A stretch of DNA of 64,000 nt from Adineta ricciae (taxonomy: Eukaryota; Rotifera; Eurotatoria; Adinetida; Adinetidae). The position numbers and the translations under genes were made by a program. A model generated the notes under the pieces. That model was not told the origin of the DNA and did no database searches. It saw nothing but the letters and a program-made list of their open reading frames with translations. The DNA is taken from assembly GCA_905250025.1 (NCBI GenBank), contig CAJNOJ010000147.1, positions 124,001 to 188,000 of the forward strand. The letters run 5' to 3'. Each line of letters opens with the position of its first letter. Position 1 is the stretch's first letter. Positions 1 to 64,000 of this stretch are shown here, piece by piece.

Positions 1-214
1 CATTCAATGTTTGCAGACAGCGACCTAGTGTTTCTAATGCTAATCCAGCTCCATACTTTCCAGCACAATCAAACACGATGGGCTTTTGTATCGATGGATA
101 TTGCATACATGTTTGAACGATTTCAAGTTTTGTTTCTTCGTCGAGTGCTACATATAAATTTCCCAGTGAACTTGTTCCGAAGATTACCTTTGGAAGTGCA
201 ATGCTGTGTGACAT
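1..214 (-). CDS. Aldo-keto reductase, N-terminal part (haplotype A, runs off window)
   Basis: The minus strand is open from an ATG at 212-214 to the window edge, about 71 codons. It reads as the N-terminus of the same NAD(P)-dependent aldo-keto reductase that is complete at 9489-10508, with a few substitutions (for example Q3H and V6A). The catalytic Asp and Tyr of the AKR tetrad lie in the visible part (FDCAGKYG). The 3' two thirds lie left of the window. Upstream sequence also matches the complete copy, so this is the other allele and not a separate paralogue. Function is discussed at the complete copy. Confidence 0.75.
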   Translation of the reverse strand, partial: MSHSIALPKVIFGTSSLGNLYVALDEETKLEIVQTCMQYPSIQKPIVFDCAGKYGAGLALETLGRCLQTLN

Positions 215-933
215 CACCAAGTAGATACAGAATACGCTTGGAATTGGTAGAAAATTTCACAAAAGAAAACTCCAGAAGTGTTCTAATGTTCACCAGTCCT
301 TCGATGCATTTATTCAACGCGTTTGAAGTGAAGATAAAAGAAGACAATAGATAAAACTGAATAGTTACTTTTATCTTTTCTTTCAATAAAAAGAACGCGA
401 GAACTTAGGTGTAAAGAAGATAACGCATATGCGTACGGTAAAATATTTGAATATCTGTTTAAAATCTATAAAATCATAAGCTTTATGATACGTATGGCAT
501 TTCAAAAGTCCTATTCGTATAATTACAATCTCGTCATTCCAGCAGGAAAACTCTCAAAAATATTTTTGGAGTTCAAGCGATAGAAATTAACGAGACCATT
601 GGTGGACTAATTCTAGGAATATTTTAGATCTGACTTTTCGCTCTTCTTCATGCATAGAATCAGTTGAGAAATTCGTCATTGAATCCTGTCCCATCCTATG
701 GAAGAAAGAAAAATTTCCCAGAGTAATTCAATGGCATGATTACAACATTTAAGCCACTCCTATACATCAATTTAAAAGAAGGCCAACTAACGGCAAACGC
801 TAATCACGAAACACAATAGATCAAATGATAAATTTTATGGCACATGCTTGTTTAGTTTTACAATTGACATCTATATATACATACATCTATTCGTTTGTTA
901 CCTTATGAAATCTGATTTGAATTTACAGTGAAT
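215..933. other. Intergenic, haplotype A
   Basis: This stretch lies between the divergent AKR start (214) and the decayed plus-strand gene (934). It matches 10509-11228 with small indels. I see no coding exon. It should hold the AKR promoter, but I recognise no specific element. A TTTACAG just before 934 could be a 3' splice site for an upstream exon. Confidence 0.5.
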
Positions 934-1535
934 ATGGCAATGATTATCTTCATTTTCAAGTGCCGTATCTTCTTCTTATTTTGGTTAATTCATCTCAGGG
1001 AGCTATTTCGGATGCTGTGCGTATAACTCAACTGAATCAACAATACGCATAAGGTATACCACCTATCGACCGTCAAGTTCAATCGCTAGTGTGTCCAGTA
1101 GTCAATGATGTTGTGCATCAATTAAATCAACTTTCAAGGAACATTTAAGCGTAGCTGGATTCGACAGAGCTAGTGCTCTACTGAATGCATGTATTGGCAC
1201 TGAATCTCTACTCACCCTCCTTCTAACATGTCCAATGACTAGAAAATTTCTATCAATACGTCAACATCCCGACTATATGTCGGTTAGCTGAAATTAACTG
1301 ATGTGCAAGTTGCACGCCCATGATCAGTGACAAAAAGTATTATGCACAGGATTCCAAAGAATTGGAATCGTGCGAACAAAAAGCACTCACATATGTTGCA
1401 ATACACAATACCGATGATCCATACAAGAAGTATGTTAAAGAAGAACAATAACAGGGAAAAACCTTTGTCGATTCTCGATTACACTACGATATTTCCGTTC
1501 AGCTTCTTTCCAAGGGCAAAGCGACTATATATGAG
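934..1535 (+). pseudogene. Decayed secreted Cys-rich protein gene (haplotype A)
   Basis: This is the counterpart of 11229-11877. The reading begins at ATG 934-936. Relative to haplotype B it carries a changed signal region (shifted frame), lacks about 24 bases after the signal, and has further indels around 1100-1130 and 1275-1300, so no continuous frame survives. Fragments still recognisable by comparison with the other copy include the part with the spaced Cys of the C-terminal third (about 1330-1530). The product family is not recognised. The gene converges on the ART gene. Confidence 0.55.
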
Positions 1536-1543
1536 GGTGATAT

Positions 1544-2815
1544 TCAGATATATTTCTGTTTATTTTTATGGATGATAAAGCGAATAAGATTGGCATCTTC
1601 AATTATCTTGTAACCATCCGAACTTGTTTCTATTTGACGTGGCGGCTTTGATCGACTTCTTTGTCTCCATACGGAATAATCTTCAAGTAAGATCGTAATC
1701 GAATGTTCGTATTGCGCAGGTTGTGTTGCATCATCGTTCTTCATCTCTATATTCTTTAACTTGCCTAAAAGCATCTCCATTTGAACAGCAACTTCTTCAA
1801 CTGATGTTTCATCACGAGATTCGCTTATTGTCTGAAATTCCTCAAGGTCAGGCATACCATCGTAGTGGATACTCAAGCTCATGATCAGTAATTTTTTGGC
1901 GATAGTATACTGATGTAATTTAACGAAGATATCAGCTAGTTTTTCTGATATACTTGCAAGTCTGTCGGCACCAAAATAAAGTGATCTAAATTATCAGAGT
2001 TCAACAGATTCCATTTCTGCAATATGCATCAACTTACTCTTCATCATCGTGACCTGAAATACAATTGTTGCTGGCGTAAAATTTTGATGCATCCAAATAA
2101 TATTCAATAGCTGCAGTAAAGTTATCCAATCCACAGCAATTATCTGCAATTCTTTCTTGAATGTAGACAATCACTTTCTCATTGTTTTCACGTGGATTAT
2201 CTTCCTGATAATATTTTATGGCCTTCTCAAGATGTTCATTTGCTGCAGCATATTTCTTTTGTTTCGAGCAAACAAGAGCCAATTTTCGTTCAATCGTAGC
2301 CAAATGTTGTTTTTTCATATCCAGTTCTATTCCATCGACCATCTGTAAAGCGATTTGAAAACACACGTAAGATAAATCGTATTCATGAAATGCTAAATGA
2401 ATAAGTGCTAATTGCATGTGACTGTCAGCAGCGGCTACTACCATATTCTCTTTTATATACAATTTCTGTATAAGTATGTATACCATGTCCTCCGTGATCA
2501 TTTGATTTCTCATGGCATGATATCGAAGCGCTTGTTCGTAATCCGGCTTATACTTTGTGTAAATACCGATGATACTGAAGTAAAGGCCAGAAATAATGTC
2601 ATAATCCGGCGTAAGGTTTCCATTAGAAAATAACATAAGGTGCTTTTCATGGCAACTCAGTTCATGATCGTACATGTGTAGATCTTTGCAGTCGCCGGCC
2701 AACTGTATCATAATGTCGCTTGTCGTCATATTATCGAATATTTCTTGGCGGAATGAATAATCAAGAAAGAGTTCAGTGTGTTGGATTAATTTCGTTCTGT
2801 TTTCCAAAGTGTTTT
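1544..2815 (-). pseudogene. ADP-ribosyltransferase-TPR gene, C-terminal exons (haplotype A, interrupted)
   Basis: The last exon (1544-1985) and part of the preceding exon (2038-2815) of the ART-TPR gene are separated by a 52-bp intron (1986-2037). The intron sits exactly where it does in haplotype B (12407-12458). The visible part encodes tetratricopeptide-like helices. The C-terminus differs from haplotype B: a deletion between two TGGCAT repeats removes about 65 bp and replaces the last residues and stop, giving a new tail. At about 2815 the exon is cut by a short repeat and then the contig ends. The remaining part of this allele is at 21816-23300, where it is also damaged. Confidence 0.7.
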
Positions 2816-2898
2816 TTGTGAAACACGACCTGAAAGAGAGTGTTAAAGTGTGTAGGGGCAGAAATTTTGACGCACCCCCGCCCCCCCCCGCCCCCGCG
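2811..2898. repeat. Short dispersed repeat end plus C-rich tract at contig end
   Basis: From about 2815 the ART exon gives way to a sequence beginning TGTGAAACACGACCTG. Its first ~35 bases match, in reverse orientation, an insertion at about 28290-28370 in the NHL/EGF gene. It is followed by an almost pure C tract (about 2874-2897, G-rich on the other strand) and the N at 2899. The C tract may be real low-complexity sequence or an assembly-end artefact. Confidence 0.55.
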
Positions 2899-2899
2899 N
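2899..2899. other. Contig junction (single N), block 1/block 2
   Basis: A single ambiguous base. Sequence to the left belongs to the ART-TPR region (haplotype A), and sequence to the right is unrelated and starts block 2 (haplotype B). I interpret it as a scaffold join. Confidence 0.8.
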
Positions 2900-4282
2900 T
2901 CAGCGTGAACTTACAGTGATCGTGAACCATATAACAGGATCACCCAAGCAAAAATTTATAACGATCATACTTCACCCAGGTCATCTGGGTGGAAAAATTT
3001 TTTAGCCCCACCCAGCACTTCCAACCACGGTTTGTGCATATTGGGGGTCTAAACTCTCTATTTATGTGATTAATTCTTTCTCCATTTCACAAAAACCCTC
3101 TTCGGCTTTTAAGGGTTAAAAAGAAAACTAGATTTGTCATAAATTAGGATCAGAATGACCGATTCTCATGTACACTCATTTTGCACACCATCGAAATAAA
3201 TCCGTCTTCTTCGGTATAGCAACCATATGACAGCCAATACAAGCTGTGCAAAAAAAGTCTTTTACATCAACAAATGGAATTTTTCTCGGCTAGAAACGCA
3301 AATAGTCTTTGATTTTATTTCATCATCATGTTTCGGTGACGAATCGACTCAATGCAAGTTGGACTTTTCTTTATTTACATTTCGGCTGACGACGGCGGAA
3401 CTGTTCTCTTGTGCGAGAAATGTTTGTTAAATAATCGCGATTCATGATTGTTTATTGGAAGGAAAATCAACATAAGAAGCAAGCAAAATTAATATGCATG
3501 GAGAAGTATCGTTTTCTGTCCGGATAGAATGCTATTAAAAAAGCTACAATGGAAGAGAAAGAGCATGGTTTGGTGATTACGTGTGCCGATGAATGGTTTT
3601 ACATTTGGTTGCTGGCCTTTATTCATATGTTAAGGACAAACATGGCCACTGAATGTCAATTGATCTAAACAAGGAAAATGTTAACGTAAGTAATAGATTT
3701 CTTATGTTTAAATACTTTAGGGTGAAGGTAAGGATGAGAATAAGTGGCGGAACTTTGTTATTTTTTTACTTCTTAAAGCTTTTTGTTCGATTTTGTCAGC
3801 ATATTCAAAGAATGCCCAATGTGTATGATATTATACTTTCGCTTTACAAATTAAAGCACGAAATTTGATCCAGCATATAAGAGTAGGAACCCAATCTTTT
3901 AAAAATTACTAGCTGAACAAAGTGCCCTAACTTGGCTCATCATGATTATCGATCAAACTTCGCCGCAGACACCGGCGTCGTTCAAGAAACCTTCGACGAT
4001 TCACCCAGACTCATTCTCACCCACACCCTCACCCTCAATTTGTATATGTAAAAAAATCTATCTTGAATATTCGACTGTTAATAACTCTTGTTCGTTAACC
4101 AATTTAAAGATGAAATATTTTTACCTAATTTAGAATACCGACGACTACGAAGCTGCTTGCTCCTGCGCTCTCTCGTCTGATTAAGCCGTTTCAATGGAAA
4201 TCGAAGTCGTGGCGATGACATACAGTGCATTGGATACATTGTAAAATGATTGTCTAAACACAAAAACCCATAACAATGAACA
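2900..4282. other. No gene recognised
   Basis: AT-rich sequence at the left end of block 2. A small hairpin (CACCCAG, 5-base loop, CTGGGTG) lies at about 2977-2996. A 40-codon open stretch from about 3558 and a Pro/Ser-rich stretch near 3942-4050 could be coding remnants, but I find no splice-consistent gene and recognise no family. Possibly decayed mobile DNA. Confidence 0.4.
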
Positions 4283-5356
4283 TCAAAACATTATGATTCT
4301 ACCAAAAACAAAGGGGCTCGCAGTGGTGTTGTTGTTACTACCTCCGGTTTGTATTGGATTATTTGTTTGTATGTGTTGAGCTGGTAGACCTAAAAATTAG
4401 GTAAAATATTGTATGAAGAACTCCAAAGTGTTTTCTCTCTGTAAGGAATCATTTGATACGATATCTAAGATTATAAAGAATTAAGAGAAGTTCCAAAGCC
4501 AATTTAAAAAAAAAGTATTTTCAGTTAGTAATCAACTAATTTTATTTATGTTCTTTTGTATTTTAGGTGGAACGAGTTATACACGATCAAGAACATACAG
4601 AAGTCATCAGCAACGATGTTCCATGGCTGACAGCATTGCTGTTTCGAAAAGGCTCCTGAAATGTTCAATGTGTTTGTGCAGCAGTAGCATCAACAATAAA
4701 GAACTTTCCAACATCTCAGTGAGTCCAAAGAGTTCTACGATCATAACTATGTTTAACTTTATTTAGAATATAATGGACATCTAGCCAACAAAGTTTTACT
4801 ACTATTGACGACAGCATAATTCAATGATTATCAACAATTGAAAACTTTATCATCATATACGCCTGGTTTGGTGAATTTCTCAACTCATTTCTTGAAGAGG
4901 ACGGCGTTTTCATCGAAATTATCTATTTAAACTACGCAGAAAATGAAACTGGAAGCTATTCTCTCAAAGAATCATCATACATTTTCAACACTTATATCTG
5001 GTTTTCGATTCTCATTCTGAATTCTTTAATACAATTAGGAAGAATGTTAAACCAGTCAAAAGTACTCATATATTAAGATATATATGGCATACCTGCATGT
5101 CCAACTGGAGCGGCGGCAGCACTTCGACCCGATTCTTGCTGGAAAAGGAAAATAATTCGATTTCTACAAACCAGAAAGAATATCTTACTTGGCCTTGTTG
5201 TTCATCCGACGAGTTTAGATCTTCATTTGGTTCGATACTCTCGGCGTACGAGGAATCCTTGATAAAAAAAATATACAAAACAGATACGTTTTAAAATCAA
5301 TCAAATCGAAAGCATCAATTTGTCTTGTATCTTACACTATGTAATGTATTGTTCAT
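4283..5356 (-). CDS. Small five-exon gene, unrecognised (about 99 aa)
   Basis: Reconstructed on the minus strand as exons 5336-5356, 5189-5257, 5093-5138, 4599-4655 and 4283-4389. All junctions are GT-AG and every phase is compatible, giving 300 bases (99 codons plus TGA). The introns are 78, 50, 437 and 209 bp. The product is low complexity: an acidic Ser/Glu/Asp segment, a QQGQQES stretch, an Ala run, a CCQPW motif, and an Asn/Thr/Gly-rich tail. There is no signal peptide or recognised domain. The start is uncertain, because the frame stays open upstream of the ATG (to about 5385) and further 5' exons may exist near 5640-5730. The long fourth intron could hide another exon. Confidence 0.45.
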
Positions 5357-6714
5357 TGTCCGAACTTGTTTTTCTTTTGCAAATCTACATAAAGTGACAA
5401 GATAAATACAAATCGTTTTAGTTCATTTAGGAATCTGTTTGTTAATGCCAAAATTGTTCATAGAGGTGCCCAATTTTAACGAAAAGAGCCGCTATATCGC
5501 TACTAACATTCTACTTCCGAGTGCTCTAGTAACGGATATTTTTTCATCATTCTATTATCTGGATTACATAAACACACAGTATTTCATTTAGAAACCATCA
5601 GCTCTTGGATATCTCAATATTCATTTATATGAACAGGAATTTAAACAAAGTGATGACAAGGCAGTCTTTGCCAATCGGAAGCCGTGGTCCATTTCCCTGA
5701 ACATAGAGCAGCGGCATCTCTTCCTAGCAGGAAACATCTTCTTTTTTCCGTTTTTACTACATATAAGTTTCTGATATTTGGATACGCTTTATTTTTTGAA
5801 TGAATCAAATTATTTTACACAGAAATTTTGTGTGAATGCTGATAGGCATGTTGATGCGCGATGAGTCATCGTTTTATGTACACACAACCTTGAAATGCCA
5901 TTCTTTTGCGGCTCCCTTTTTTAATCGAAGAGGTTTTGCCCAGTAAATCAACTGACAATATTCAGACAAATGATGATAAGCCTAAACGCTTATTCATGTC
6001 GAAAATAACCAACTGTATCGAACTGAAATGTGATTTACTGAAAAATGATAACAGAAGTAAAGAAGTTCTCAGTTGCAATTTAGTTGATCAGTTGAATGAC
6101 AGTGTAAAATGTTTGAACGTATCGGTCGTAGCATTGGAAAGCCCTTTTTCCTGTTGTACTAAGTTCAAGAATAGTGGGCAAGGTCTTTTCCTTTCGATCT
6201 TTGACATGAAAACTTCTATAAAGTATCCGCTTCTGTTCCACTTGGAATTTTCCATAGAAAACAATGAGTCTTCGTACGTTCCCACCACTAATTTTATCCG
6301 TGTAAAATTGGAAATCACTACATCCCTATTTGATATAGAAACTAAATATCCAAATTTCTCTTTTGGGCTGAATTAATTTAATCTGTTTCTTCTGCTATAG
6401 TTTCATGACATCTTGTAGATGACAATGTCTTAGCATAAGAAAGAAATATAAAATGTTTTGTGTAAATCATAATTTAATTCATATAAAACGACGAAGTTTG
6501 TTTTGCGATGTTTGAGTGTAAAACGCGTAATTCGCAATAGATATCATTTTTCTTCTTTCAACAAAGTAAACGCGCAAAAACGTATGTTTCTCACATATTT
6601 ATCTCCGCTGACAACTTATCTATCATGTTTACACTCTATTTTGCATATAAATAACCGAGTAAAATCAGAGCATTTCTTAATTTAATTGATGTAAAATTAT
6701 TTCTTTATAATACT
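5357..6714. other. Mostly non-coding; one unexplained open frame
   Basis: The only strong open frame is 5906-6376 on the plus strand (about 150 codons), listed separately. On the minus strand near 5640-5735 two frames look protein-like, one beginning MPLLYVQGNG, and could be a 5' exon of the gene at 4283-5356. The rest is AT-rich without recognisable features. Confidence 0.35.
5906..6376 (+). CDS. Unrecognised open frame (possible exon or gene remnant)
   Basis: An open frame of 156 codons is unusually long for this base composition, which is the main reason to list it. There is no ATG at the 5' end (the frame is open from a TTG), so if coding it is an internal or terminal exon. An adjacent frame just upstream, beginning with ATG at about 5848, runs 32 codons to a stop at the same place and could be joined by a frameshift. 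The translation has mixed polar and beta-prone character with several Cys. No domain is recognised. The opposite strand also has a shorter open frame here. Confidence 0.25.
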   Translation: MRLPFLIEEVLPSKSTDNIQTNDDKPKRLFMSKITNCIELKCDLLKNDNRSKEVLSCNLVDQLNDSVKCLNVSVVALESPFSCCTKFKNSGQGLFLSIFDMKTSIKYPLLFHLEFSIENNESSYVPTTNFIRVKLEITTSLFDIETKYPNFSFGLN

Positions 6715-7104
6715 ATGGGCAACGAGATTGCAAAGAGAAAGAATAGCTACACATTTGACAATGAATCTCATCGGAACCGACGGCAGTATTCGAAATTTCT
6801 CAATGATGATGGTTTGTATGATTTCTTTTTCTCTTAATAATACATTCGTACCTTTTTCTTGTTAGTACTAGACATAATACCAACAGAATCTGAACACAAT
6901 CTAAGTGATACAGGTAATAAGGATAATATCCATAAAAAACGAATGATGTTTTTTTTGTACAAATTCTTTTGTTTAGAGTCTGAACAAATTCGATCGGTAA
7001 ATTACATTTCATTCGAATAAATTTTATTTATTTATCATTCTTTTATCTAGGAAGCTCGTCGTTATTCATTCACTCTACTTTCTGCTACTCTACCTGTACA
7101 GTAA
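6715..7104 (+). CDS. Small four-exon gene, 72 aa, N-terminal MGN
   Basis: Exons are 6715-6811, 6866-6913, 6977-6996 and 7051-7104. All junctions are GT-AG, the introns are 54, 63 and 54 bp (the typical size in this genome), and the phases fit to give 73 codons including TAA. The product is short, hydrophilic and charged, starting MGNEIAKRK. A Gly at position 2 could allow N-myristoylation, although position 6 is Ala and not Ser/Thr, so this is weak. There is no signal peptide or known domain. The gene is invisible as a single ORF. The stop is followed by an inverted repeat (CCTGTACA/TGTACAGG). Confidence 0.5.
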
Positions 7105-7470
7105 TTGTACAGGTACTGTTTGATAATTCTAGTATTCTTGCTTGAACATTTTTTGTACTTTTGTTTGGATAAATCATTTCGATAAAAAAAAAGAAATTTG
7201 CTCGTTCTCGGATACCAACTTATATTCAGTAGTACTTTCACATTCAAACAGAAAAATGTTGAGGGTGTCATATTGGTACGTTCAAGTATTTTCAATTACT
7301 AAAAATTTGCTTCGTCATATGAAGAGGTGTTTTCAAATTGTTCTGGTTGATTGCTTTTGATGACTCAATTACGATGAGAAATCTTTTTGACATGTTACAT
7401 ATTTTCTCATTTATAAGAATAGAACACTAACAGGCACCTGAATTCACTCTACATTCTATTATCATTCATT

Positions 7471-7725
7471 ATGAGTGCTCCTACTGGTATGGGTCGTCGA
7501 ACTGCTGCACATTATCGTGATATCGATGTTCGTCTGCATAAGTATATTAATCAACAAAGTGGAAATGTTCTCTTTCCGGCTCATCAGAACTTTCGTCACT
7601 TTCATCCGGCGCCTGGAATAGTACATAAACCTCACTTTGCTCGTCGAGAACACCGACACTATGGAATCTACTCATATGATGACGACGATGAAAGAATGTT
7701 TCGACGACATTGGATGCATTACTAA
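7471..7725 (+). CDS. Small His/Arg-rich protein, 84 aa
   Basis: A single-exon ORF from ATG 7471. The product is rich in His, Arg, Tyr and Asp, with a run of four Asp near the C-terminus and HRHYG and RRHWMHY motifs. It has no signal peptide or membrane segment. A canonical AATAAA at 7849-7854, about 125 bp after the stop, supports a real mRNA 3' end. The opposite-strand frames over the same DNA are less protein-like. Function unknown. Confidence 0.5.
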   Translation: MSAPTGMGRRTAAHYRDIDVRLHKYINQQSGNVLFPAHQNFRHFHPAPGIVHKPHFARREHRHYGIYSYDDDDERMFRRHWMHY

Positions 7726-8176
7726 CCAAGTGAATTGATTGCAGATTTGTTTCTATCCTTAACTGAACGGGACAAAGAGGAAAAGTGGATGATACGCATA
7801 AGAACTAATGTCCTTTTTCTTTTAATATTTTGACAGAATACAAAGAAAAATAAAGTATACGTCATGACATTTTATCTTTCAGAGCAATATATTTGATGCG
7901 CTGTAACCATCATAGTTATGCTCATTTGTTTTATTTCATTGACGTCAGTTCATATTATAGTCTATTATTCATTGAATTCCGCAACTGGACTAGCTATGAA
8001 AAACAACATTGATATCTAGTTTAGATTCATCCATAGGATATATATAAGAATATCAGTACCGTTCGTTCAACTATACCTTGGTTTATACCTTTATTAAAAT
8101 GTTTTTAATATTTTATAATTTGTTAGCTTCGACCTTTATTAAGACAGTTACAAAAGAATCTTTTTTTCAATAGCCA
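7726..8176. other. Intergenic between convergent genes
   Basis: Holds the 3' UTR and AATAAA (7849-7854) of the 84-aa gene and presumably the 3' UTR of the minus-strand Apple-kelch gene. No coding exon seen. Confidence 0.5.
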
Positions 8177-9223
8177 TCAATAATACTCGGCAGTGTTAAG
8201 ACAACGGCTGCCATCAGACCCACCAATCACTAGCACTGATCCATTTGGTAAAAGGCTTGCCGTATGATAGCACCGCCTAGTGCTCATATTTTTAATCATT
8301 TTCCAGCTGTCTGTCGATAAATCATACAGTTCTGCACTATTGAGTTTAACATTATTAGTATCTCTTCCGCCAGTTACTAATACATTTCCATTTGATAACA
8401 TGGTTGCTGTATGATCATATCGCGGAAAATTCATATTTCCACGTACTGTCCAATTACCTGTGGACGGATTATACAATTCAGTAATATTGTGATAAGTACC
8501 CCCAGTTACTAACACCATTCCATTGGATAACATGGTCGCTGTGTGACTAGAGCGTGCAAAATTCATGTCCCCAGCCTTCGTCCAATTACCTGTTGATGGA
8601 TCATACAATTCCACACTCTTGAGAAAATTATTGCCATCAAACCCACCAATCACTAGCACTTTTCCATTTTGTAGCAAGGTCGCTGTGTGAAACTTTCGCT
8701 CAAAACTCATGCTTCCAGTTGTTATCCAAGCTAAATGAGTCATTTACCAGTTATTCTCTATTCGCCTTAGTACATATCATAGTTAACATACTTTGAGCAA
8801 TATTTGTCGTGATTGGCATCGCGGTTGATATCATGGTGGAAGGACAGTGCATATTTGACTCTATACCAGAAATCCTTAATTTTTTTAAGATCGAATAGAA
8901 GTAAACTGACCATCATTTTTTCGACAGCAAATAGTACTTGCTCGAATATTTGTGGACGAGCTAATATTGCCTGCTTCACAGTGTTCGCCAAACATCGAAC
9001 AGTTCCTATTCTCATGAAAGTAAACAGCTGTTTGACACTGAATCTCGTGCACACATCGCCAAATGCAAGATTGAATCGATGCATCCGTGGGTGGCAATAT
9101 TGTATTTCCAAGAGCAGCACAAGCCGAATTAGGAGTATAGATTGCAGATCGATGGACCTTGGTCACAAGAATCGCATCGATCTTTGAAAGAACAAGATAA
9201 ATCAAAAGAACATACATTCTCAT
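8177..9223 (-). CDS. Secreted Apple/PAN-like plus kelch-repeat protein
   Basis: Three exons: 8911-9223, 8792-8860 and 8177-8730. The GT-AG introns are 50 and 61 bp and the frame is continuous (312 codons, 311 aa). Residues 1-18 form a signal peptide. Residues about 25-105 are Cys-rich and read like an Apple/PAN module (paired CxxxC and final CC). A short Ser/Thr-rich linker follows. From about residue 125 to the end there are four kelch-type blades, each with an HTAT..L.NG.VLV.GG core and a tyrosine/tryptophan strand ending W. Four to five blades is fewer than a usual six-blade propeller, so the domain may be short or assemble with another chain. Expected to be extracellular, with a binding role. 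Only haplotype B is in the window. Confidence 0.75.
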
Positions 9224-9488
9224 TCCTTCCTAGTTTATGAATTCTTCTTTTTTTTTAGAGTATGTGTTTAAATAATAAAGTCCAGTAGAATGTCAATATT
9301 TTCTTATGATCGTTCGATTTTTGGTTAATTTATTTAAGAAACTATGACATTACTATATTTACCGTAGAAAAGGCATGCATTTTTTTCTTCGCGAAACAAA
9401 AATAGTTTGTTTACACAAAAAGTTTGACTTTGTTCTTTGATTAAATACAAAAAGTTGGAAATCGATCTTGTCATTTGACTGCTTACGA

Positions 9489-46836: not shown

Positions 46837-46911
46837 TTTCAATTGTTTTTCTTAATATGCAACACGCTGAAAGTGCGCATCGAATTTTTATTTTCATTAG
46901 TACAGAAAAAT

Positions 46912-54487: not shown

Positions 54488-55450
54488 ATGACTTTCGATG
54501 TGATGATAAGAGCCAAACGATACAAAGAACGAAAGACGGTGCTTGTTATATCATTAACGGCGTGCTTCACCCTTCAACCAGTATAATTATTTAGAGTATA
54601 GGCTTCCATTCGATGAATCAGTCAATTTGTTTGATCCAAGTTCTTCAGAGTTTAATCAATATGCTAATTTTGTATTTCACATACCTTCCGACAACAAAAC
54701 TGACCAATTTTACTTCCAAGCTGGTTCTACCGTAGTTCTAAATAACGGTCTGTCAACCATCATCACATCCTTGCGATGTACTGCTTTGATCCAACGTTTG
54801 CTTTTACTTAAATATAATATACAAACAAAAAACATGCGCAAAGTTCATGGATTTCAAATTCTGGCACATTTTTATATCTTCATCATGACTCATGTCGGCA
54901 ACTGTCGATGAATATAATATCACAACATTAGATTTTGTGCAAGAATATATTCAGCAAGATGTAAAAAAATGTGGATATTCTGATCAAACATTCATATTTG
55001 ATCCAGACGAGAATTGGCTGGTTGATATTCACACATTGATTATTGATAGAGAATATCATCCATATTATGTCAAAATAGATTTTAAATTTAATCGATAAAG
55101 TCAAAGATATCGTTGTGGATTTTTGTTCACTACACAAAGATGGTAGAGCTAGTTCAATGACATACGATTCAAAGACAAAACGAATATTATTATCATGGTT
55201 AAAAACTGGAATCACTAGGGATATTGTTATGGTTGATATGAACTCTTATACCAGTGAATTTTAAAAAGAAACATTACTTTTGAGAATACTTGGTGGATTA
55301 TTTGTCCAAAGCGTTCAAGTTTTTTTGATGAATCCACCCGTCATGTAATGTGTCTAATTATTGTTGAACTTGATAGAATGAAAATTGTGGAAAAAAGGCA
55401 AGCGATAGTCGATGTAGGTTTCCTTGGTTGGACTTTATTCAGACATAATA
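54488..55450 (+). pseudogene. Decayed unidentified gene (haplotype B)
   Basis: Starts with ATG 54488 (MTFDVMIRAKRYKERK). The frame breaks near 54590, then reopens (54627-54911 and 54892-55098) with FDPSSSEFNQYANFVFHIP and QAGSTVVLNNG. This copy keeps more of the central part than 41134-42061 but has its own frameshifts and stops. Family not recognised. Confidence 0.4.
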
Positions 55451-55839
55451 GAACTTGTAGTATAGATATTCTGAATGATCATCATAAAAATAAACACTCT
55501 ACTAGCAATTGAATAATCTTATGTCAATATAGAATGAGGCAGAATATCATGTTGATTTCGTCATTCGATGACGCACATAAAGAGCAACGCAATTCATGTT
55601 TTCTGCAACATGAAAAGAAATTGTTTGTAATTGGGTGTCTAATTGATTTTTCTGCCACTTCGTGAATGAATGAAAACAACTAACGATGATTTCTCTTTCG
55701 ACCGGTCGATGACAAGCTTTCTCATTTTTCTTCTCCATCTTTCCATCTGTATATATACATACATCTACACATATATTTTAGTTATTTTTCAATACAATCA
55801 GTTTTGCTATTGGTCTATTCTGTACATCTCCACACTGGT

Positions 55840-56031
55840 ATGGATATGAATTTGTTTCTCGGCTCGAATGGCATTCCTTATGGTCAACCTGTGACAAGAA
55901 GTGAAATGGTTCATTTAAATAATATTCCACCACAGCTCTATGGATTCCACTATGATCCGTTACCAAACATAGGTGTCAATGCACCGTACGTTAGATATCA
56001 CAGACTACCCAATTCTGGATTGCCTAACTGA
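55840..56031 (+). CDS. Small 63-aa protein, Pro/Tyr/Asn-rich (haplotype B)
   Basis: Allele of 42471-42662, same length, with only a handful of residue changes in the first third. The last 40 residues are identical, which supports coding selection or recent divergence. Confidence 0.45.
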   Translation: MDMNLFLGSNGIPYGQPVTRSEMVHLNNIPPQLYGFHYDPLPNIGVNAPYVRYHRLPNSGLPN

Positions 56032-56178
56032 CATTGAAAAAATGCATTTCCAATTTGTAAACTGCGATCTATTGTGATGAAATATGCACACTAAATAAAC
56101 TAAGGAAAACAGCTCGGTTGATGTTGTTATTTATTAGATATAATCTTATGAAAGAAAATACTAGATAGAACAACGATG

Positions 56179-57069
56179 TCATAGAGCGGCACGAAATTCA
56201 TTCATTGAGAAATTAGGATCGATCTTGCGACCTCTTGGTACGGCTGCTTCTTTATGACCAAGAACACGTGCAGAAGGAACGCCATAAGCTTTTTGAAGTG
56301 CTCGGACTCCCCTGAGATAGCTTTGATATTGCACTTCAGGCCAGTGATTGTGTCCACTATCAGTTGCTGGGAGACCAACTCCTTCAGCTTCGATACCGAT
56401 CGCGTTGTTGTTTCCATAAACTGAATCGTCGATGGTACTACCAGCATGATAGCAGCGACCAGCAGCAATGACAAACCATGTTCCTGATCGACCGAGTCCG
56501 AGTTGGGCTAGTGGACCTGCAAGACCGGAGATGCCGTCACGAATAGCAGTCAGCGATGGGTAATCTCCTGAAGCTGGGCCAGCTGTGTGGTGAACGACAA
56601 TACCTTTGACAGATGACATGACACCGTGACCACGAGTTCTCCAACCGGCAACTTCAACAACATTGAGACCAGCACCGCGGAGAATGTCAGCCAAACCGGT
56701 AAGCATGGTGTTCACTGGTTTACTTGGACCGGGTCCACCAGTTGGTGCAGATCCAGTTGTACAACATTGAATGTTGTTACCACCGGGACAAAGGTTAGCT
56801 GGATCAGAGCTTCCTGAACAAGTCGAAGTTGGTTGACATTGACCACCAACACCTTTGCTGTTTGTACATGTGCGGTATGTACAACATTGAATGGTTTGGT
56901 CACCAGGACAGAGATTTGCTGGATCTGATGTTCCGCCTAAGGTTTTACAACTGCTGGTGCTAATACATTCTCCTTTGCGACCATTTCTAGCTGTGCATGT
57001 GCCATGTTTTTGACCAAGAGCGATCAACGGCAGAGCTAACAAGACAATGAGTTGGACACGAATCATCAT
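56179..57069 (-). CDS. Secreted bacterial-type N-acetylmuramoyl-L-alanine amidase with two Cys-rich modules
   Basis: A single exon of 296 aa. Residues 1-19 form a signal peptide. Residues 24-63 and 68-103 are two copies of a six-Cys module (each ending DPANLCPG....QCC). A Gly/Pro/Ser linker follows. Residues about 125-296 are an Amidase_2 domain with H160/H161 (VVHHTAG), H208 (CYHAGS) and H272 (LGHKEAA) as likely zinc or catalytic residues, then GRKIDPNFSM. The domain resembles actinobacterial and phage amidases (GPLAQLGLGRSGTW, NNAIGIEAEG) more than animal PGRPs. The local GC content is visibly higher than its surroundings and there are no introns. This suggests horizontal acquisition, probably for antibacterial or digestive use outside the cell. 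It cuts the muramic acid-L-Ala bond of peptidoglycan. Confidence 0.88.
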   Translation of the reverse strand: MMIRVQLIVLLALPLIALGQKHGTCTARNGRKGECISTSSCKTLGGTSDPANLCPGDQTIQCCTYRTCTNSKGVGGQCQPTSTCSGSSDPANLCPGGNNIQCCTTGSAPTGGPGPSKPVNTMLTGLADILRGAGLNVVEVAGWRTRGHGVMSSVKGIVVHHTAGPASGDYPSLTAIRDGISGLAGPLAQLGLGRSGTWFVIAAGRCYHAGSTIDDSVYGNNNAIGIEAEGVGLPATDSGHNHWPEVQYQSYLRGVRALQKAYGVPSARVLGHKEAAVPRGRKIDPNFSMNEFRAAL

Positions 57070-57386
57070 TGTTATCTTCTATATAATATCAGTCGATACT
57101 GTTAAAAACAACGATCCACCTTCTATCTATTTCATATAAATGTGTAACAGCCTATATATATGCTGCGCTTAATCTTTTTTTTAATAACGATGAAAAACAA
57201 AAGATGAAAAATCCACCGTTTATTTTTTCTCTGCTTTCAAAAATTGATCCGTCGGTAATTAATTGAAAAGTGAAATATAATATAATTTTCTTAAATAGGA
57301 CATATCACAGCTAGTCATTTGAAAAACGGTACTTTCGCAAAAATCAAAGTCTGCTTCTGTACGATAGCAGCATATTACTGATTATT

Positions 57387-60322
57387 TCAATGTATTCTAT
57401 AGTAACTGTTGATTTCCCTGATATGTTCAGGATAATGAATCGCATTTTGAAGTTCTAGGCCTTTCTTCAAACAATCATCAATCGTTGGCGGCGAAATACT
57501 TCCAGTTATAGTATTTAGCACCTGTTTACCCCATGCGATCATGTTTGCTGTCAACAATGACTTAATCTCTTTTTTTATAGCTTTGTTACGTATACGCTTC
57601 GATGGTAAGCCCTCCAACGATGTTAAAGTGTGATTAATTTTCAGGGCGTCTCTTAGTTGTATTAATCCTTGTTCTGAAATTGCATTACGAGCCAAATCGA
57701 TAGAACGTATATGCTGATTGAATTGTATCAATCGACTGATTTCCGCTGCTCCTTCATTTCCCAGAATGTTATCTAAGCCACCGAAGATAGTTGTAGACTT
57801 TAAAAAACCTAGGCCCAATTGTTGCAAGCTTGGATGATGTATCAGTGCGTCAGTCAAAGATCGGGCACCATCAGGACCAACGGAATTTGATGCTAGACTC
57901 AATCGTTGTAGACATTTATCATGTTTGAGTCCTGCTGCTATTTGACACGTGCCTGCATCAGTCAACGCATTGCACGACAGGTACAATGTTTCTAGACAAC
58001 TATCGTTTTCTTCGAAATGACGACGAATCACTTCTGCACACTTCACAGTGAGACCGTTCGAATCGATGTATAAATGCTTTAACGTACGGTTCATTTTAAG
58101 ACCACCGAATAGAATTTCACATCCTTTATCCAATAAACCAGTGTTCAGTAGATCTAATGTTTGAATGCAAGTATTGCTGGATAGCATTCGAGCGATATGA
58201 ACTGCACCAGAAGCTAAGATTGGGTTACGCTTGAGCCAAAGTGCTTTGACTTTGGTATCCGTGGCTAAGGCATCGCATAGCAATCCAATGCTGTCACTGT
58301 CAAATCTGTTACAAGCAATATACCACGTGTCAATGGTCGAATCAGGATTGAAACGAATGTAATCAGAAATTGCTTCTGCTCCAGGTCGTCCTACGATATT
58401 GTTCCCTTAGAAAACGACAGATTAGAGAATTAGCTTTAATGATTGCTTCGAGGTTCTTACCGAGTAGCAGACGGTTAACTGTCGAGCTGTGTTTCATAGC
58501 GTCGAGTACTGGTTGAACTCCCTGAGGACCTACGGCTTGTTTACATAAATCCAATCGTCCGCCTGTCATCATCGTTCCACGTGGAAAAACAATCGGATTT
58601 TTATCATCCGATGGGCCAGGTTTATTTGCTCTTAAATATTCTATAAGTGGTTGAAGTTCTTCCAAAGGACACGGAACAACTAAAGGAGTCCGTACGTCAC
58701 TTTTTCTAGGCAATGAAAAATTTTGAGAATGTCTTTACTTGGTTGTGGCTGAGGATGTATAACATTGGAGGCGGGAGAAGCAGATAACACTTCTTCTCGT
58801 TGTTGTCGAGTACAGAACAATGGTCGATCTTTCCATGCAACTTGCTCTTCGATAAAAATCAACGATCTTCTCTTCAATTGCCGACGAATGGTTTCAATAA
58901 GGTTCCGATACATTTGATCTGCTTGACGGTTTTCATTAGATAAGATTTGTATATACTTCGCAACTTCTTTTGCCATAACTAAACACAAGTTCATGATAGA
59001 ACTAAGATTAATATACATATTCTTACTTGTTGTGAGTTCGTTTGGATTATTTGAAATGAATGGTGCTTCATAAATACACTGACTGATCAAAATCTCATTT
59101 TTAATGTTGTCATTCGTTTGTTTTAATGCAATTTCATAATCATGATACAGCTGATTTCCAATCATTTGAACACATGCTTGTTTTAGATTTTCTAGTAATG
59201 TTGTTCCCGTTGGATGTGTATCTTTCAGCCGTTCAGCGTATGCATAAAGTGTTTTCATATCACCCCAATCACCGTATCTTGGAATTGTACTAAGATGCTT
59301 GGAGAGAACTTCATCTGGTTTTTTCAAATACAATTGTATCCAATGATGAAAGAAAGGTGTCATCATATTAGTATTGTCAACCGATTCACTCTGATGAAAT
59401 TTCATTCGTTCACACCAAACAAGTAACATTCCATCATCAAAGTGATTACTCTCGATATCTTCAATTAAATGCTGAATACTTTCTTTCGACACTGGATGTA
59501 AGAGACCAATCGGAGTGGCAAACGCTTGTTCTTCTTTTCTTCGAGACGACAGTGTACAAGTTCGTCTCTGATGATATAAGATAGTGGCTTCGATTTTCCC
59601 ATCAAAGGATTTTGACGTGTGGCTTTGATAGGTATTGTCTCTTTCTGAAAGATTTTCTTGTTGCTCTAGTAAAAATTCTCGAATCATTGCGTACGGCCAA
59701 GTTTTTGGTGTGAAGCGACTCCCTTGATGCGTGATCACCTTTGCATCTACAAAAGCTGCTGCCAGTCGCAAAGTTCGATCATTATTAATCGAACCATCTT
59801 TAGTTCCATAGATGTGCAAAGAACAAACATTTTGTATAGACTTTGATTTCATTAAATCTTGGTAGTGTTGCATTTGTGACTCCAATCCAGAGACAAGAAT
59901 AGCAAAATAAAACGAAATATTTCCTAATGGTTTTAGTCCGCATAGAATGCCAGCTAATGATGCGCCTTCCTAAATACGAAAATGCAATATTCTTTTTCAC
60001 AAAAAAGATAAGTGTCACATACCCCCAGACCAAGTATGCCATCGAAAGGCCCTTCTGATTTGAATAATCGATCGAGATAGTACACTGAAGTGTATAGATG
60101 CTGCTGCTGAGTTTTGTCACTCAAAGTTGATAAAGGTTGAACTTCTCCATCAATTGTGCTATGATAAAGTTGTTTCCTATTAGCGATATGAAAGGTCGCT
60201 ATATCTGTCAAGGCTTTAAATAACGCTTTTGTATTACGTTTGAAAAGCTTAAAGTTTTGATGGAAGTCTGGAAGAATAAGTATCTTCAAAGGAAGATCTG
60301 TTGTTCTATCTGATACAACCAT
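57387..60322 (-). CDS. FSH1/OVCA2-like pseudo-hydrolase fused to leucine-rich repeats
   Basis: Five exons: 60023-60322, 59027-59969, 58739-58978, 58461-58658 and 57387-58405. The GT-AG introns are 53, 48, 80 and 55 bp and all phases fit, giving 900 codons. Residues about 10-205 match the FSH1/OVCA2 alpha/beta-hydrolase (LKILILPDFHQN start, GPFDGILGLGEGASLAG elbow, LHIYGTKD, then THQGSRFTP). At the nucleophile elbow the usual Ser is G100, and the usual catalytic His is R185. D158 remains, so it is probably not an esterase. Residues about 210-490 have no recognised domain. Residues about 520-830 are RNI-type leucine-rich repeats (LxxLxLxxNxLxDxG). The 80-bp intron is the least certain junction: a frameshift is the alternative. 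No signal peptide. Possibly a sensor or scaffold. Confidence 0.7.
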
Positions 60323-60496
60323 ATATGAATAAGAAGCAACTATTTGAAAAAGAATCCGAATCGAAATATGCTATTTCTTCTAAGTTACGACAGTATCTAC
60401 CATGTAATCATTATTGGTTTGATGTACATAACGACAGAAAAGAAAAGGTAAAGAAAGATGTCAGTAAAAACAGAACCGACTAATAACAAGATATAT

Positions 60497-61405
60497 TCAA
60501 CGATAAACAGCTGGTGACACATTTAAAAATAAAACACGAACTTCGACGCTCTGTCGATGGTCTTGTCGAGCATCAGGTCGCTCAATTGTTGCAGCGGAAT
60601 GTGGTGTATGTAAAGTGTCAAATACTACTGCATCACCTATCTTCATGTCTGACTGACATATCCATCGGTGATAGTCACGAAAGTACACGCCTAGTGCAGT
60701 GAAATGGTTGCCTGTTCGTCGTACAGCAGTATACGGCTGTAGTTCTTGATCGAATTGATCGATTGAGCTGTAATCCATGACAGCAAGGGTGTTCTTAGTA
60801 GGACAGGGCGTAAGTGGCATCCATATGTTTACTACTTTTTCTACTTGTACGCTGGTATACTGTTCATCCGTTAATGTATGAGGTTGTAGGCCTAACGCTA
60901 GCTCAATATTGACTTTCCATGTGTCTTTAAAGTGAAAAAGTGTTTCGGTAAAATTCGTACTGGGAAAATCAACATGAGCAAAGCACACTGGACCAAAGGC
61001 ATTCGAATGTTGTTTATGGTTCGTGTCTCGGTATACGGTGTCCAAAGGCACGACAAGATTGAATTTCAAATTGAGCTGGTGACCCCATTCTGTTAACAAT
61101 GGAATAATGCTCTGTCGTAGACGAATTCGATTCGCTCGTTCGGTGGGTACTGCTGCTAGTTGGTGAAGTGCTTCCGAGATTATGTTGTTCAGTTGCCAAT
61201 ACTCAAAGCCATGCTGTTGAAAGGCGAACAATCTGCGTACTTCTTCGCCATCGTAAAGTTGAACAGAAGTGTCTTCAACCTGCAGATTACCGTTTTGAAT
61301 CAGAGAGGAAACCTCATCTGTACTCACATCGTTCAGCGGCTTAAATGCTGGACCGAGATAGATCATTTCTGTGTATACCGTTTTCTTCATTTCCTTCTGC
61401 GCCAT
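60497..61405 (-). CDS. CmcJ/NvfI-type 2OG-Fe(II) oxygenase
   Basis: An intronless ORF of 302 aa. Conserved features of the CmcJ/NvfI/GA4-desaturase-like group: H144 and D146 (FAHVDF), NIWMPL.PCPTKNTLAVMD, the distal His in FDTLHTPHSA (H266 or H269), and a C-terminal arginine (SVEVR). These enzymes hydroxylate or desaturate small molecules in fungal and bacterial secondary metabolism. No signal peptide. A fungal or bacterial origin is likely but not shown here. Substrate unknown. A FAD monooxygenase gene lies 730 bp away, divergently transcribed. Confidence 0.75.
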   Translation of the reverse strand: MAQKEMKKTVYTEMIYLGPAFKPLNDVSTDEVSSLIQNGNLQVEDTSVQLYDGEEVRRLFAFQQHGFEYWQLNNIISEALHQLAAVPTERANRIRLRQSIIPLLTEWGHQLNLKFNLVVPLDTVYRDTNHKQHSNAFGPVCFAHVDFPSTNFTETLFHFKDTWKVNIELALGLQPHTLTDEQYTSVQVEKVVNIWMPLTPCPTKNTLAVMDYSSIDQFDQELQPYTAVRRTGNHFTALGVYFRDYHRWICQSDMKIGDAVVFDTLHTPHSAATIERPDARQDHRQSVEVRVLFLNVSPAVYR

Positions 61406-62135
61406 ATTCTGATAAAAAGATAGTATGCGTACTTATCAACTGTGATCGTTTTTTAACAAAATAAATAGTTGTAAATCTATCGAGCTATACGTAACTTGAG
61501 AGGGCACATGATGCGATATGTTGACGACATTATTGCACAATATAGTCAAAAAACAAAAGTAACCTTATCGGAAGTGACGCAGAAATGAATAATAAGGATC
61601 TCTGACTGTTAGAGAAAAAGAGAGAACCATTGGAGGTGATGATATGGACGATCTTCGGCCGTTCGTTTATTTCTCAAACCCTTTTACAAATACAGACAAC
61701 GGTGCACATATATACGAAGGAGAGACGAGACGATAAAGAATATAGTGATGGATGTGGAGGACAACCCCACGTCGCCTTAACACTAACGCAATTACTGTTT
61801 TCTTTAATTATTTACACCTAACATTTGACATAGTATCTGTCGACAGTACTCATTAACTCGGTCACGAGTGATACATAACAACATAGAACACTGTACACGT
61901 ATATAACACTTAATGAGTATAAAAAATTTGTCTTACATTGAACACTCTTTTATCGATATATTGTCATTATAATTACCTAAAAAAAGAAGTGCTTTGCAAG
62001 TCCAATAAATACCCTCAAAATATGTTGTTATTTCTTTCGTTCTTCACGACATCTGAATGCATTACCTATCGGCGGAAAGAAAAGCAAAATGAGTCGTTCG
62101 TAAATAACAAACTTATTCTCACTTGATGAGAAATT
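61406..62135. other. Divergent spacer between CmcJ-like and FAD monooxygenase genes
   Basis: About 730 bp, AT-rich. Could be a shared bidirectional promoter for two oxygenases. A 63-codon plus-strand open frame at 61630-61821 has no coding character. Confidence 0.4.
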
Positions 62136-63494
62136 ATGGAAGGTATTGAAACCCCACAAATCGTTGTTGTCGGCGGTAAGAAAACAAACGACTATTTCAT
62201 ATCTAGTCATTTCTATTCAGGTGGACCAGTTGGTCTATTCACTGGTATCCAAATCAAAATTCTTATTCCAGACATTAAACTTGCTATCTATGAAAAACAT
62301 ACCGAATATCAGCGTAAACATGTACTTCGCTTAAACAAATTGACGACATTTTTCGGTTTTCCACCTCATCCGTTATTAACGGATATGATCAACAATCTAC
62401 CCTCCGTGGTTCGAACTTCGGTTCTAGAAGGTCAACTCCTAGATATAGCCAAACAACTAAAAATACCTATTCACTATCGGCATATCACTAACCTTAGTGA
62501 ATTTTCCAACGCACAAGTGATTATCGGCGCTGATGGTTCTCATTCATTAGTACGTGAAATTGTTTTCGAAAATAAAATGAAGTACGAAAATGTTCTGAAA
62601 TATGTTCTCGAAGTTAAATACGAAGTTTATGGTCAAGGCGAAAAGCTTGATTATGTTAAATATCAATATCGGACACAAAAACAAATGAAATATATCATTG
62701 AAGAACATATTGGTACAGAAAAAGATAATCGCACACCGATTACCATTCACTTATTAATTGATCAACAAACGTACGAACAAATGAAGCAAGCAACGTTTAA
62801 AAATCCCTTTTATCTACGTACACACAAACATCTGATGCCAAATGATTTACTTGACACAATTATGCTTTGGTTAAATGTGAAAAAGGAGTATGCTAATGAG
62901 AAACGCGTGGAAAACTCAGAGAGAATCACGACAATCGCTCTAGCTTGTTACGCATCCGCGAATGTCGTTCACTACGATGAAGATAAAGCACAACACATAT
63001 GTCTAGTTGGTGATGCAGCGTTTGGCGTTCCATTCTTTCGTTCTTTAAATAACGGCATCATCTGTAGTAGAAAACTCGCCTCTTGTATTGAATTATTCTT
63101 TAAGTCGAATTCTGCACAGACAAACGGAGGAAGTTTGTTAAACAACATGACATATGAATGGACAAAATTCGTCAATCGAACTCATTCTCTAATACATTTG
63201 AATCAGCCATTACAAGCATATAGTCAATTCGTTCAAACTCTCGCAGGAAAAGAGATCATCGTCGCACAAAATAAAGCGCATTTACTTTTTGCAGCCGATA
63301 TGATGAACAAAATAAATGGCGCAGTCCCATGGCAAGTCAACTGCTGGTCGAAAAAGGAAGTTGATCATTTCAAACACAACAACGATGATTCATCTGAAGA
63401 AATAGTTCATGAAGGACACGCCGGCATCTCCGAAGTAGATGACGAATATGATTTAGTGCAAGAATTCGATCTTATACCAACAAACACATCTTAA
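62136..63494 (+). CDS. FAD-dependent monooxygenase (PHBH fold, group A)
   Basis: Exons 62136-62175 and 62221-63494 with a 45-bp GT-AG intron give 437 aa. The intron is a multiple of three and contains no stop, so an unspliced ORF also exists. Only the spliced form restores the dinucleotide-binding motif G13-G-G15-P-V-G18 (IVVVGGGPVG). Further FAD motifs are GADG (about 116) and GDAA..VPF..SLNNGI (about 277). The C-terminus is acidic, with an EE/DDE-rich tail of about 40 residues. It would hydroxylate an aromatic or similar small molecule with NAD(P)H and O2. Cytosolic. Bacterial-type flavoenzymes of this kind are often horizontally acquired in bdelloids. Origin not tested. Confidence 0.8.
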   Translation: MEGIETPQIVVVGGKKTNDYFISSHFYSGGPVGLFTGIQIKILIPDIKLAIYEKHTEYQRKHVLRLNKLTTFFGFPPHPLLTDMINNLPSVVRTSVLEGQLLDIAKQLKIPIHYRHITNLSEFSNAQVIIGADGSHSLVREIVFENKMKYENVLKYVLEVKYEVYGQGEKLDYVKYQYRTQKQMKYIIEEHIGTEKDNRTPITIHLLIDQQTYEQMKQATFKNPFYLRTHKHLMPNDLLDTIMLWLNVKKEYANEKRVENSERITTIALACYASANVVHYDEDKAQHICLVGDAAFGVPFFRSLNNGIICSRKLASCIELFFKSNSAQTNGGSLLNNMTYEWTKFVNRTHSLIHLNQPLQAYSQFVQTLAGKEIIVAQNKAHLLFAADMMNKINGAVPWQVNCWSKKEVDHFKHNNDDSSEEIVHEGHAGISEVDDEYDLVQEFDLIPTNTS

Positions 63495-63567
63495 GACTTC
63501 AAATGTGAATTCAAATCTTTATTTATATTTCAAGAATGATTTTTTTCTGAAATAAAACAAAAACGAC

Positions 63568-64000
63568 TCATTTTGAACAACGAGCATTGTTGGCATTGAA
63601 TGGGAAGTTGAGCATTGAGTCAATCAATACTTGTAGACCTGTTTTTGCTTGATTGACTTCTTGACCGGATAGTTTGGCGATACTAAATGATGTCATGAAT
63701 TGGTTTTGTTGTAATTCATCGTAAACAGCATTCAATGGCTTGACGATCGAATCGAAATCGATCATTGTCATCAGACCATTGGGAAAAGATCCGGCATTGT
63801 TCAATGCCAATTGCACTGTACTTGCAACACTCGAGAGTTTTTGATTGATGGATAAAATAATGTGTTGTTCATTTGGTAGGGCAACTAAGGAGTTTTGTAG
63901 TTGAGTTAATTGGTAATTTAAATTATATAGTTGAGCACTGTAAACAACTAAATCATTTTGCATGGAATTTAAGTCGTTCTTCAATGATTGAACTTGACTT
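63568..64000 (-). CDS. C-terminal part of an unrecognised helical protein (runs off window)
   Basis: The frame is open from the window edge down to a stop at 63568, about 143 codons visible. The translation is strongly helical, rich in Gln, Asn, Leu and Ser, with coiled-coil heptads (LYNLNYQLTQLQNSL). It ends in a short Cys-containing tail (NARCSK). The start lies outside the window. No domain recognised. Confidence 0.55.
   Translation of the reverse strand, partial: SQVQSLKNDLNSMQNDLVVYSAQLYNLNYQLTQLQNSLVALPNEQHIILSINQKLSSVASTVQLALNNAGSFPNGLMTMIDFDSIVKPLNAVYDELQQNQFMTSFSIAKLSGQEVNQAKTGLQVLIDSMLNFPFNANNARCSK

What the first reader, a model, noticed from the sequence alone, without database searches (positions are those of the whole stretch)
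1..64000. Apparent triple tandem duplication is best explained as two interleaved haplotypes
Each of the three single-N junctions separates overlapping near-identical copies, and the ends interlock. Block 1 ends (2815) about 65 bp before the place where block 3 begins, measured on block 2 (13240 versus 13306). Block 2 ends (21814, equivalent to 30574) about 225 bp before block 4 begins (43417, equivalent to 30799). Blocks 1+3 and 2+4 each form one continuous haplotype. A real tandem duplication would not produce reciprocal breakpoints lying within coding exons at single Ns. Every gene count from this scaffold would otherwise be doubled.
Basis: seen in the sequence. Interest (0 to 1): 0.85.

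Follow-up and report, generated by a model that had tools for sequence, protein, structure and literature searches.

The report
Two rotifer haplotypes zipped into one
What looks like a row of duplicated gene blocks is most likely the two parental-type versions of one stretch of a bdelloid rotifer genome, cut up and stacked alternately by assembly software, so its genes are counted twice; the duplication is an artefact, not biology.

Summary
At the first three, the end of the left block is repeated after the N, and the ends interlock (68 and 223 bp apart). 95.1% of the window has a direct partner on the same scaffold.

The pattern runs through the whole 258.7-kb scaffold: 14 of 23 N junctions separate overlapping copies, and 10 of 13 successive overlaps interlock within 640 bp.

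The strongest evidence is a computational fingerprint. The copies are identical for exactly 121 bp at 7 of 12 contig left ends tested; an identical run stops exactly 221 bp inside 6 of 13 right ends (a seventh: 121). Right flanks on two other scaffolds also gave 121 (2 of 2). Such ends are de Bruijn-graph forks, not duplication breakpoints. In the window only 43416 shows it: 21815 does not, and 2899 could not be tested.

The genome is a bdelloid rotifer's; partner divergence resembles that of homologs on separate scaffolds. This is a known artefact class (heterotype false duplication). It matters because same-scaffold homologs have been read as evidence of ameiotic bdelloid genomes. Read depth was not testable.

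The parts
1..2898 (+). Block 1, haplotype A (continues upstream to scaffold C147:112493); last 82 bp (2817-2898) are a C-rich contig end without a partner
   Evidence: 1-2816 matches 10295-13237; tail seen; upstream part
2899..2899 (.). Single N, zipper junction (J13)
2900..21814 (+). Block 2, haplotype B; spans the A gap at 13238-13305 without a break; first 216 bp without a partner
13238..13305 (.). 68 bp between the end of block 1's match and the start of block 3, measured on block 2; inside a TPR-repeat reading frame
21815..21815 (.). Single N, zipper junction (J14); neither side bears the 121/221 mark
21816..24067 (+). Block 3, first contig, haplotype A
   Evidence: 13306-14814 and 15004-15589 match 21816-23880
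23881..24216 (.). Insertion with 28-bp terminal inverted repeats (27 of 28 matching) between TA dinucleotides, absent from block 2; contains the N at 24068
   Evidence: sequence; the same inverted-repeat pair at 4 places in the genome
24068..24068 (.). Single N between two contigs of the same haplotype (J15), not a duplication junction
   Evidence: flanks map to scaffold 139173-139589 and 139583-139928 in order
24069..43415 (+). Block 3, second contig, haplotype A; spans the B gap at 30576-30798
30576..30798 (.). 223 bp between the end of block 2 and the start of block 4, measured on block 3; inside an NHL-like reading frame
43416..43416 (.). Single N, zipper junction (J16); left end has a 221-bp and right end a 121-bp identical run with the partner copy
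43417..64000 (+). Block 4, haplotype B (continues to scaffold 202886, window coordinate 78886)

Best explanation
The scaffold is a zipper of two haplotypes of one bdelloid rotifer. A short-read de Bruijn assembler built the two homologous copies (about 8% different) as separate contigs. Many of these contigs end where the copies share a k-mer (k about 121), because the graph forks there. A scaffolder then linked contigs of both haplotypes into one path ordered by start position, A1-B1-A2-B2..., and wrote a single N at most joins because the contigs overlap instead of leaving a gap. Each haplotype is continuous apart from small gaps; nothing is duplicated in tandem. Shown: the two-copy interleaving, its extent over the scaffold, the 121/221 marks, the two-copy count for the stretches searched, and the bdelloid identity. 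Inferred: that the copies are alleles on homologous chromosomes, that A1 joins A2 in one molecule, and how and by which program the joins were made.
For: Direct collinear overlaps at the three junctions and interlocking ends in the window. Same pattern over the 258,000 bases read: 14 of 23 N junctions are zipper joins, 6 join contigs of the same haplotype, 3 are unclassified; 10 of 13 successive overlaps interlock within 640 bp. Identical run exactly 121 bp at 7 of 12 distinct contig left ends tested; run limit exactly 221 bp from 6 of 13 contig right ends, and 121 at one more; inside the alignments only 13 runs reach 121 bp in 102,743 columns, about 1.3e-4 per position. Two right flanks on other scaffolds, measured after the mark was found, both exactly 121: C200, C148. 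Among the matches returned for three stretches of 2.3, 6.0 and 5.5 kb there is no third homolog-level copy, apart from a 179-bp contig-end overlap. Six sampled loci have a homolog-level partner: three on another scaffold, three on the same scaffold in direct order. Eight gene pairs picked from long open frames give dN/dS 0.13-0.60.
Against: No read depth or spanning reads. 11 of 25 distinct contig ends tested lack the 121/221 mark, among them both sides of the window's junction at 21815; the junction at 2899 had no end-to-end partner and was not tested; the C148 left flank lacks the mark. A fork at a shared k-mer would also arise between recent paralogs, so the mark does not by itself prove allelism. 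Three of 13 successive overlaps do not interlock closely (1,448 bp, about 2.2-2.7 kb, and 9,153 bp). 24% of the 258,000 bases read have no in-scaffold partner at 84% over 200 bp.
Confidence: 0.95

Rival explanations
1. Real tandem duplications: three neighbouring segments in the window (and eleven more along the scaffold) were each duplicated in place.
For: Copies are direct, adjacent and diverged. Bdelloid assemblies have been reported with homologous blocks on one scaffold, some as tandem repeats (PMC5916493 section 9).
Against: In the window each copy begins or ends at an N or within 216 bp of one. The duplicated segments mostly abut end to end within tens to hundreds of bp, which independent duplications do not do. 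Many block ends sit exactly 121 or 221 bp from the limit of an identical run. No third homolog-level copy among the matches returned for the stretches searched, as would be needed if each homolog carried the duplication and were assembled.
Confidence: 0.02
2. Two long paralogous segments (a real segmental duplication of more than 100 kb, in tandem or elsewhere), with their contigs interleaved by the scaffolder.
For: The zipper and the k-mer mark would look the same for any two sequences about 8% apart.
Against: Divergence is like that of sampled homologs on separate scaffolds (85-95% identity), while weaker relatives, perhaps ohnologs, are 65-77% identical. Only two copies were returned; paralogs would need alleles of their own or be homozygous.
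Confidence: 0.03
3. Homologous copies truly linked on one chromosome, as was inferred from the 2013 Adineta vaga assembly, with a correct or nearly correct scaffold.
For: The 2013 A. vaga assembly showed such linkage (PMC5916493 introduction passage and section 9).
Against: That pattern was mostly palindromic (23 of 25 blocks), whereas here all long copies are direct. The alternation at the Ns and the fork marks predict an assembly cause. Three of six sampled loci have their homolog on another scaffold.
Confidence: 0.01

Closest known systems
Heterotype false duplication (Ko et al. 2022, PMC9516828; passages seen)
   Same: Divergent haplotypes assembled as if paralogs, on the same scaffold, with gaps between the copies
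   Different: Here they alternate along most of a 258-kb scaffold instead of forming one adjacent pair, and contig ends carry exact k-mer marks. Depth and k-mer spectra were not available.
Uncollapsed haplotypes in Adineta vaga long-read assemblies (Guiglielmoni et al. 2021, PMC8178825; passages seen)
   Same: Same animal group; divergent homologs kept apart and enlarging the assembly
   Different: That study compares long-read assemblers; this scaffold has k-mer marks and scaffold joins that point to a short-read assembly
Same-scaffold homologous blocks in bdelloid assemblies (Flot et al. 2013 as described in Nowell et al. 2018, PMC5916493 section 9, read)
   Same: Homologous blocks linked on one scaffold; Nowell et al. 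note that many collinearity breaks span scaffold gaps
   Different: Those in A. vaga were mostly palindromes (23 of 25); these are direct repeats, and their cause can be read from many of the contig ends

Membership tests
[quoted passage not shown]
   Single N at all three window junctions; 14 of 23 scaffold junctions separate a pair
Heterotype false duplication | Half read depth of the duplicated copies | not testable with these tools
   No reads held
Heterotype false duplication | Haplotype-specific (one-copy) k-mers in the reads | not testable with these tools
   No reads held
Heterotype false duplication | Discordant or spanning read pairs at the join | not testable with these tools
   No reads held
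Heterotype false duplication | Divergence like that between homologs elsewhere in the genome (my own criterion) | tested here: met
   Scaffold mean 7.85% including gaps; homologs on other scaffolds at 85-95% identity at 3 loci
Real tandem duplication | Breakpoints independent of contig ends | tested here: not met
   Copies in the window begin or end at Ns or within 216 bp of one; 121/221 marks at 14 of 25 distinct ends tested on the scaffold
Bdelloid rotifer genome | Bdelloid spliced-leader exon (23-mer recalled from memory) | tested here: met
   41 matches, each with 1 mismatch; 0 for the reversed pattern
Bdelloid rotifer genome | Degenerate tetraploidy: homologs plus more distant ohnologs | tested here: inconclusive
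   Homolog plus weaker 65-77% copies seen at some loci; synteny of the weaker copies not shown

The most novel reading that the evidence does not exclude
The two homologous copies really lie on one chromosome (for example as one long tandem or dispersed segmental pair), and only the fine order of contigs is wrong. This would be real linkage of homologs in a bdelloid.
Probability: 0.03. Interest if true: 0.55.

Novelty: not a real feature. Interest (0 to 1): 0.22.

Why it matters
Gene counts, gene-family sizes and tandem-duplicate lists from this scaffold would be inflated, nearly doubled within the window, and several genes at the joins would look truncated. In bdelloid rotifers, homologous copies on one scaffold have been used as evidence for a genome that cannot undergo ordinary meiosis; here the same appearance most likely comes from software. 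The exact 121/221-bp mark gives a test that needs no reads: any published same-scaffold homolog pair can be checked for contig ends that sit at a fixed k-mer distance from the limit of identity. That artefacts of this class exist is already known.

Tried and rejected
A haplotype link from the 179-bp overlap between the end of block 3 (scaffold 167237-167415) and the start of the next contig (202888-203066) looked decisive at 99.4%. But block 4 is 100% identical to block 3 there, so it does not tell the haplotypes apart; dropped.

Use of an ohnologous region as an outgroup for gene order: a 69% relative of the 2OG-oxygenase gene lies on C43, but two neighbouring stretches gave no match on C43 at DNA level, and the letters of C43 could not be had. 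Abandoned.

Idea that the interlock gaps are homozygous tracts collapsed into one contig: the last 100 bp of several right ends differ from the partner (J2L, J3L, J6L, J10L, J12L), so this is not general. Not claimed.

Identifying the species: not the 2018 Adineta ricciae assembly (174.5 Mb, longest scaffold 1,675.3 kb, per PMC5916493, against 130.46 Mb and a contig of 1,697,170 bp here). Left unnamed. A 2021 bdelloid paper (PMC7943196, passages) did not settle it.

Naming the scaffolder from the single Ns: I recall that SSPACE writes one n where contigs overlap without merging. The SSPACE-LongRead passages seen (PMC4076250) say that negative gaps with an overlap found are merged and that gaps are written as one or more Ns, which does not settle it. 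One paper search on this found 389 papers; none of the 10 listed abstracts said so, and passages of two of them did not help.

Ends dropped before the k-mer count: of 46 contig ends at 23 junctions, 26 had an end-to-end partner and were tested. J5R and J6R are the same pair, so 25 are distinct. The 20 others (repeats, unaligned tails, same-haplotype overlaps, no partner, or end of the held sequence) were not counted; both sides of 2899 and of 24068 are among them.

Loci not searched: 4 of the 10 fetched (C1, C25, C75, C125).

Full report
WHAT WAS CHECKED. The window is C147:124001-188000 of a 130.46-Mb assembly in 1033 contigs. It holds four single Ns, at 2899, 21815, 24068 and 43416. 1-2816 matches 10295-13237, 13306-21814 matches 21816-30575, and 30799-43415 matches 43417-56784, with aligned pieces at 85.6-94.6% identity. 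The 1-2816 copy and its partner are the right-hand part of a longer overlap that begins upstream of the window. The ends interlock with 68 bp and 223 bp between them. The fourth N, at 24068, joins two contigs of the same copy.

THE PATTERN IS NOT LOCAL. I read bases 1-258000 of the 258,723-base scaffold. It has 23 N junctions in that stretch: 21 single Ns and two of 100 Ns. Of these, 14 separate overlapping direct copies (one of them, at 46914, in a repeat-rich stretch at 76-89% in pieces). Six join contigs of one copy: both flanks map in order to one partner stretch, or they share an exact 221-bp overlap. Three are unclassified (224052, 226445, 257680). Between successive overlaps, 10 of 13 steps run from a 179-bp overlap to a 638-bp gap; the other three are 1,448 bp, about 2.2-2.7 kb, and 9,153 bp, in or near repeats, same-haplotype joins or unpartnered stretches. 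At 84% and 200 bp or more, inverted partners cover 466 bases against 196,723 of 258,000 bases (76.2%) with a direct partner. In the window the direct share is 60,855 of 64,000 bases (95.1%). Two blocks run several kb past their match, short repeats apart: scaffold 75872-81416 and 199822-202886.

WHERE THE BLOCK ENDS COME FROM. At 26 contig ends with an end-to-end partner I measured how far the two copies are identical from the contig end inwards. At contig left ends (right of an N), the identical run is exactly 121 bp at J2, J3, J5 (= J6, the same pair), J9, J12, J16 and J22: 7 of 12 distinct ends. At contig right ends, an identical run stops exactly 221 bp from the end at J2, J3, J6, J10, J12 and J16 (6 of 13) and exactly 121 bp at J11. 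So 14 of 25 distinct ends bear a mark and 11 do not. Inside the alignments only 13 identical runs reach 121 bp in 102,743 aligned columns, a rate of about 1.3e-4 per position. The binomial tail for the nine 121-bp ends first counted (including the doubled pair) was 2.6e-29, or 2.4e-12 with a generous penalty for offsets; the number 121 itself was chosen after seeing the data. As a check on fresh sequence I then looked at two further scaffolds: C200 (single N at 52693, right block matching from 29240 at 93.9% over the 9.3 kb held) gave 121; C148 (single N at 31750) gave 121 on its right flank. The left flank of C148 gave neither 121 nor 221; the left flank of C200 could not be tested. A fixed length of shared sequence at contig ends is what a de Bruijn graph with k about 121 leaves where two similar sequences share a k-mer. 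The extra 100 bp at right ends suggests an extension step; the assembler is not known and this is inference. In the window only 43416 bears the mark, on both sides; 21815 does not; 2899 had no end-to-end partner; and 24068 lies inside an inserted element.

WHY ALLELES. The genome is a bdelloid rotifer's: the spliced-leader exon, recalled from memory, matches 41 times with one mismatch and its reversed control 0 times; that bdelloids share a 23-nt spliced leader is stated in PMC1925144 (passages). Of ten 2-kb loci fetched from other scaffolds I searched six. The homolog-level partner lies on another scaffold for C10 (95%, C190), C50 (85-91%, in two pieces on C222 and C33) and C100 (92%, C311), and on the same scaffold in direct order for C148 (85-99% in pieces, with a further 142-bp match at 99%), C200 (97%) and C300 (78-93% in pieces; no N was looked for there). 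The window's copies are in the same range (scaffold mean divergence 7.85% including gaps), and no third homolog-level copy was returned for the stretches searched, save the 179-bp contig-end overlap; the search scores only its best candidates. Weaker relatives at 65-77% look like ohnologs or paralogs. In eight gene pairs, chosen because both copies hold a long open frame (one is a partial copy), dS is 0.07-0.15 and dN/dS 0.13-0.60. Allelism is therefore likely, but it is not proven without reads.

GENES AT THE JOINS. The three window joins cut a TPR-repeat gene, an NHL-like frame and an Amidase_2 gene. By position, one haplotype is cut while the other runs through, and the missing part of the cut copy lies in the next contig of the same chain; for the Amidase_2 gene that contig begins at scaffold 202888, outside the window, with a 179-bp overlap. 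Counting genes on the scaffold as printed gives false extra copies and false truncations.

LITERATURE. Ko et al. 2022 (PMC9516828, passages) describe heterotype false duplications and list half depth, gaps between the copies, discordant linked reads and one-copy k-mers; here only the gap criterion could be tested, plus the divergence. Nowell et al. 2018 (PMC5916493, section 9 read; passages) report that same-scaffold homologs and palindromes in the 2013 A. vaga assembly were taken as signs of ameiotic evolution, found only two linked blocks in A. ricciae, both tandem, and noted that many collinearity breaks span scaffold gaps. Guiglielmoni et al. 2021 (PMC8178825, passages) treat uncollapsed haplotypes in A. 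vaga long-read assemblies. I recall a later chromosome-scale A. vaga assembly with ordinary homologous chromosomes; I did not read it here.

VERDICT. The object is an assembly artefact of a known class, unusually regular and extending along a scaffold, with a clear numerical mark of its cause at more than half of the contig ends tested.

Noticed in passing
23881-24216: Insertion present in one haplotype only, with 28-bp terminal inverted repeats (one mismatch) between TA dinucleotides. The same inverted-repeat pair occurs at 4 places in the genome (C7, C147, C237, C877) as elements of 326-339 bp, so the N inside this copy probably hides only a few bases.
   Followed up: partly
24217-24324: About 107 bp next to that insertion have no counterpart in block 2, and the words around it look repeated; origin not worked out.
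   Followed up: no
2817-2898: C-rich tail at the end of block 1 without a partner, perhaps a faulty contig end.
   Followed up: no
G000 C6, C8, C43, C77, C79, C99, C146: Spliced-leader exons often occur in head-to-head pairs, mostly about 153 bp apart (371 on C79, 467 on C146), several pairs per cluster; some copies are unpaired.
   Followed up: no
scaffold C147:5732-6798 and 219805-221372: Tandem arrays (unit about 126 bp) at two distant places of the scaffold that resemble each other at about 70%.
   Followed up: no
scaffold C147:101716-101948: A 233-bp piece at 97% identity lies inverted between two contigs of one haplotype, at a single N.
   Followed up: no
contig right ends on C147: At six right ends the limit of identity lies 221 bp in, exactly 100 bp more than the 121 bp at left ends; the program step that causes this is not known.
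   Followed up: partly
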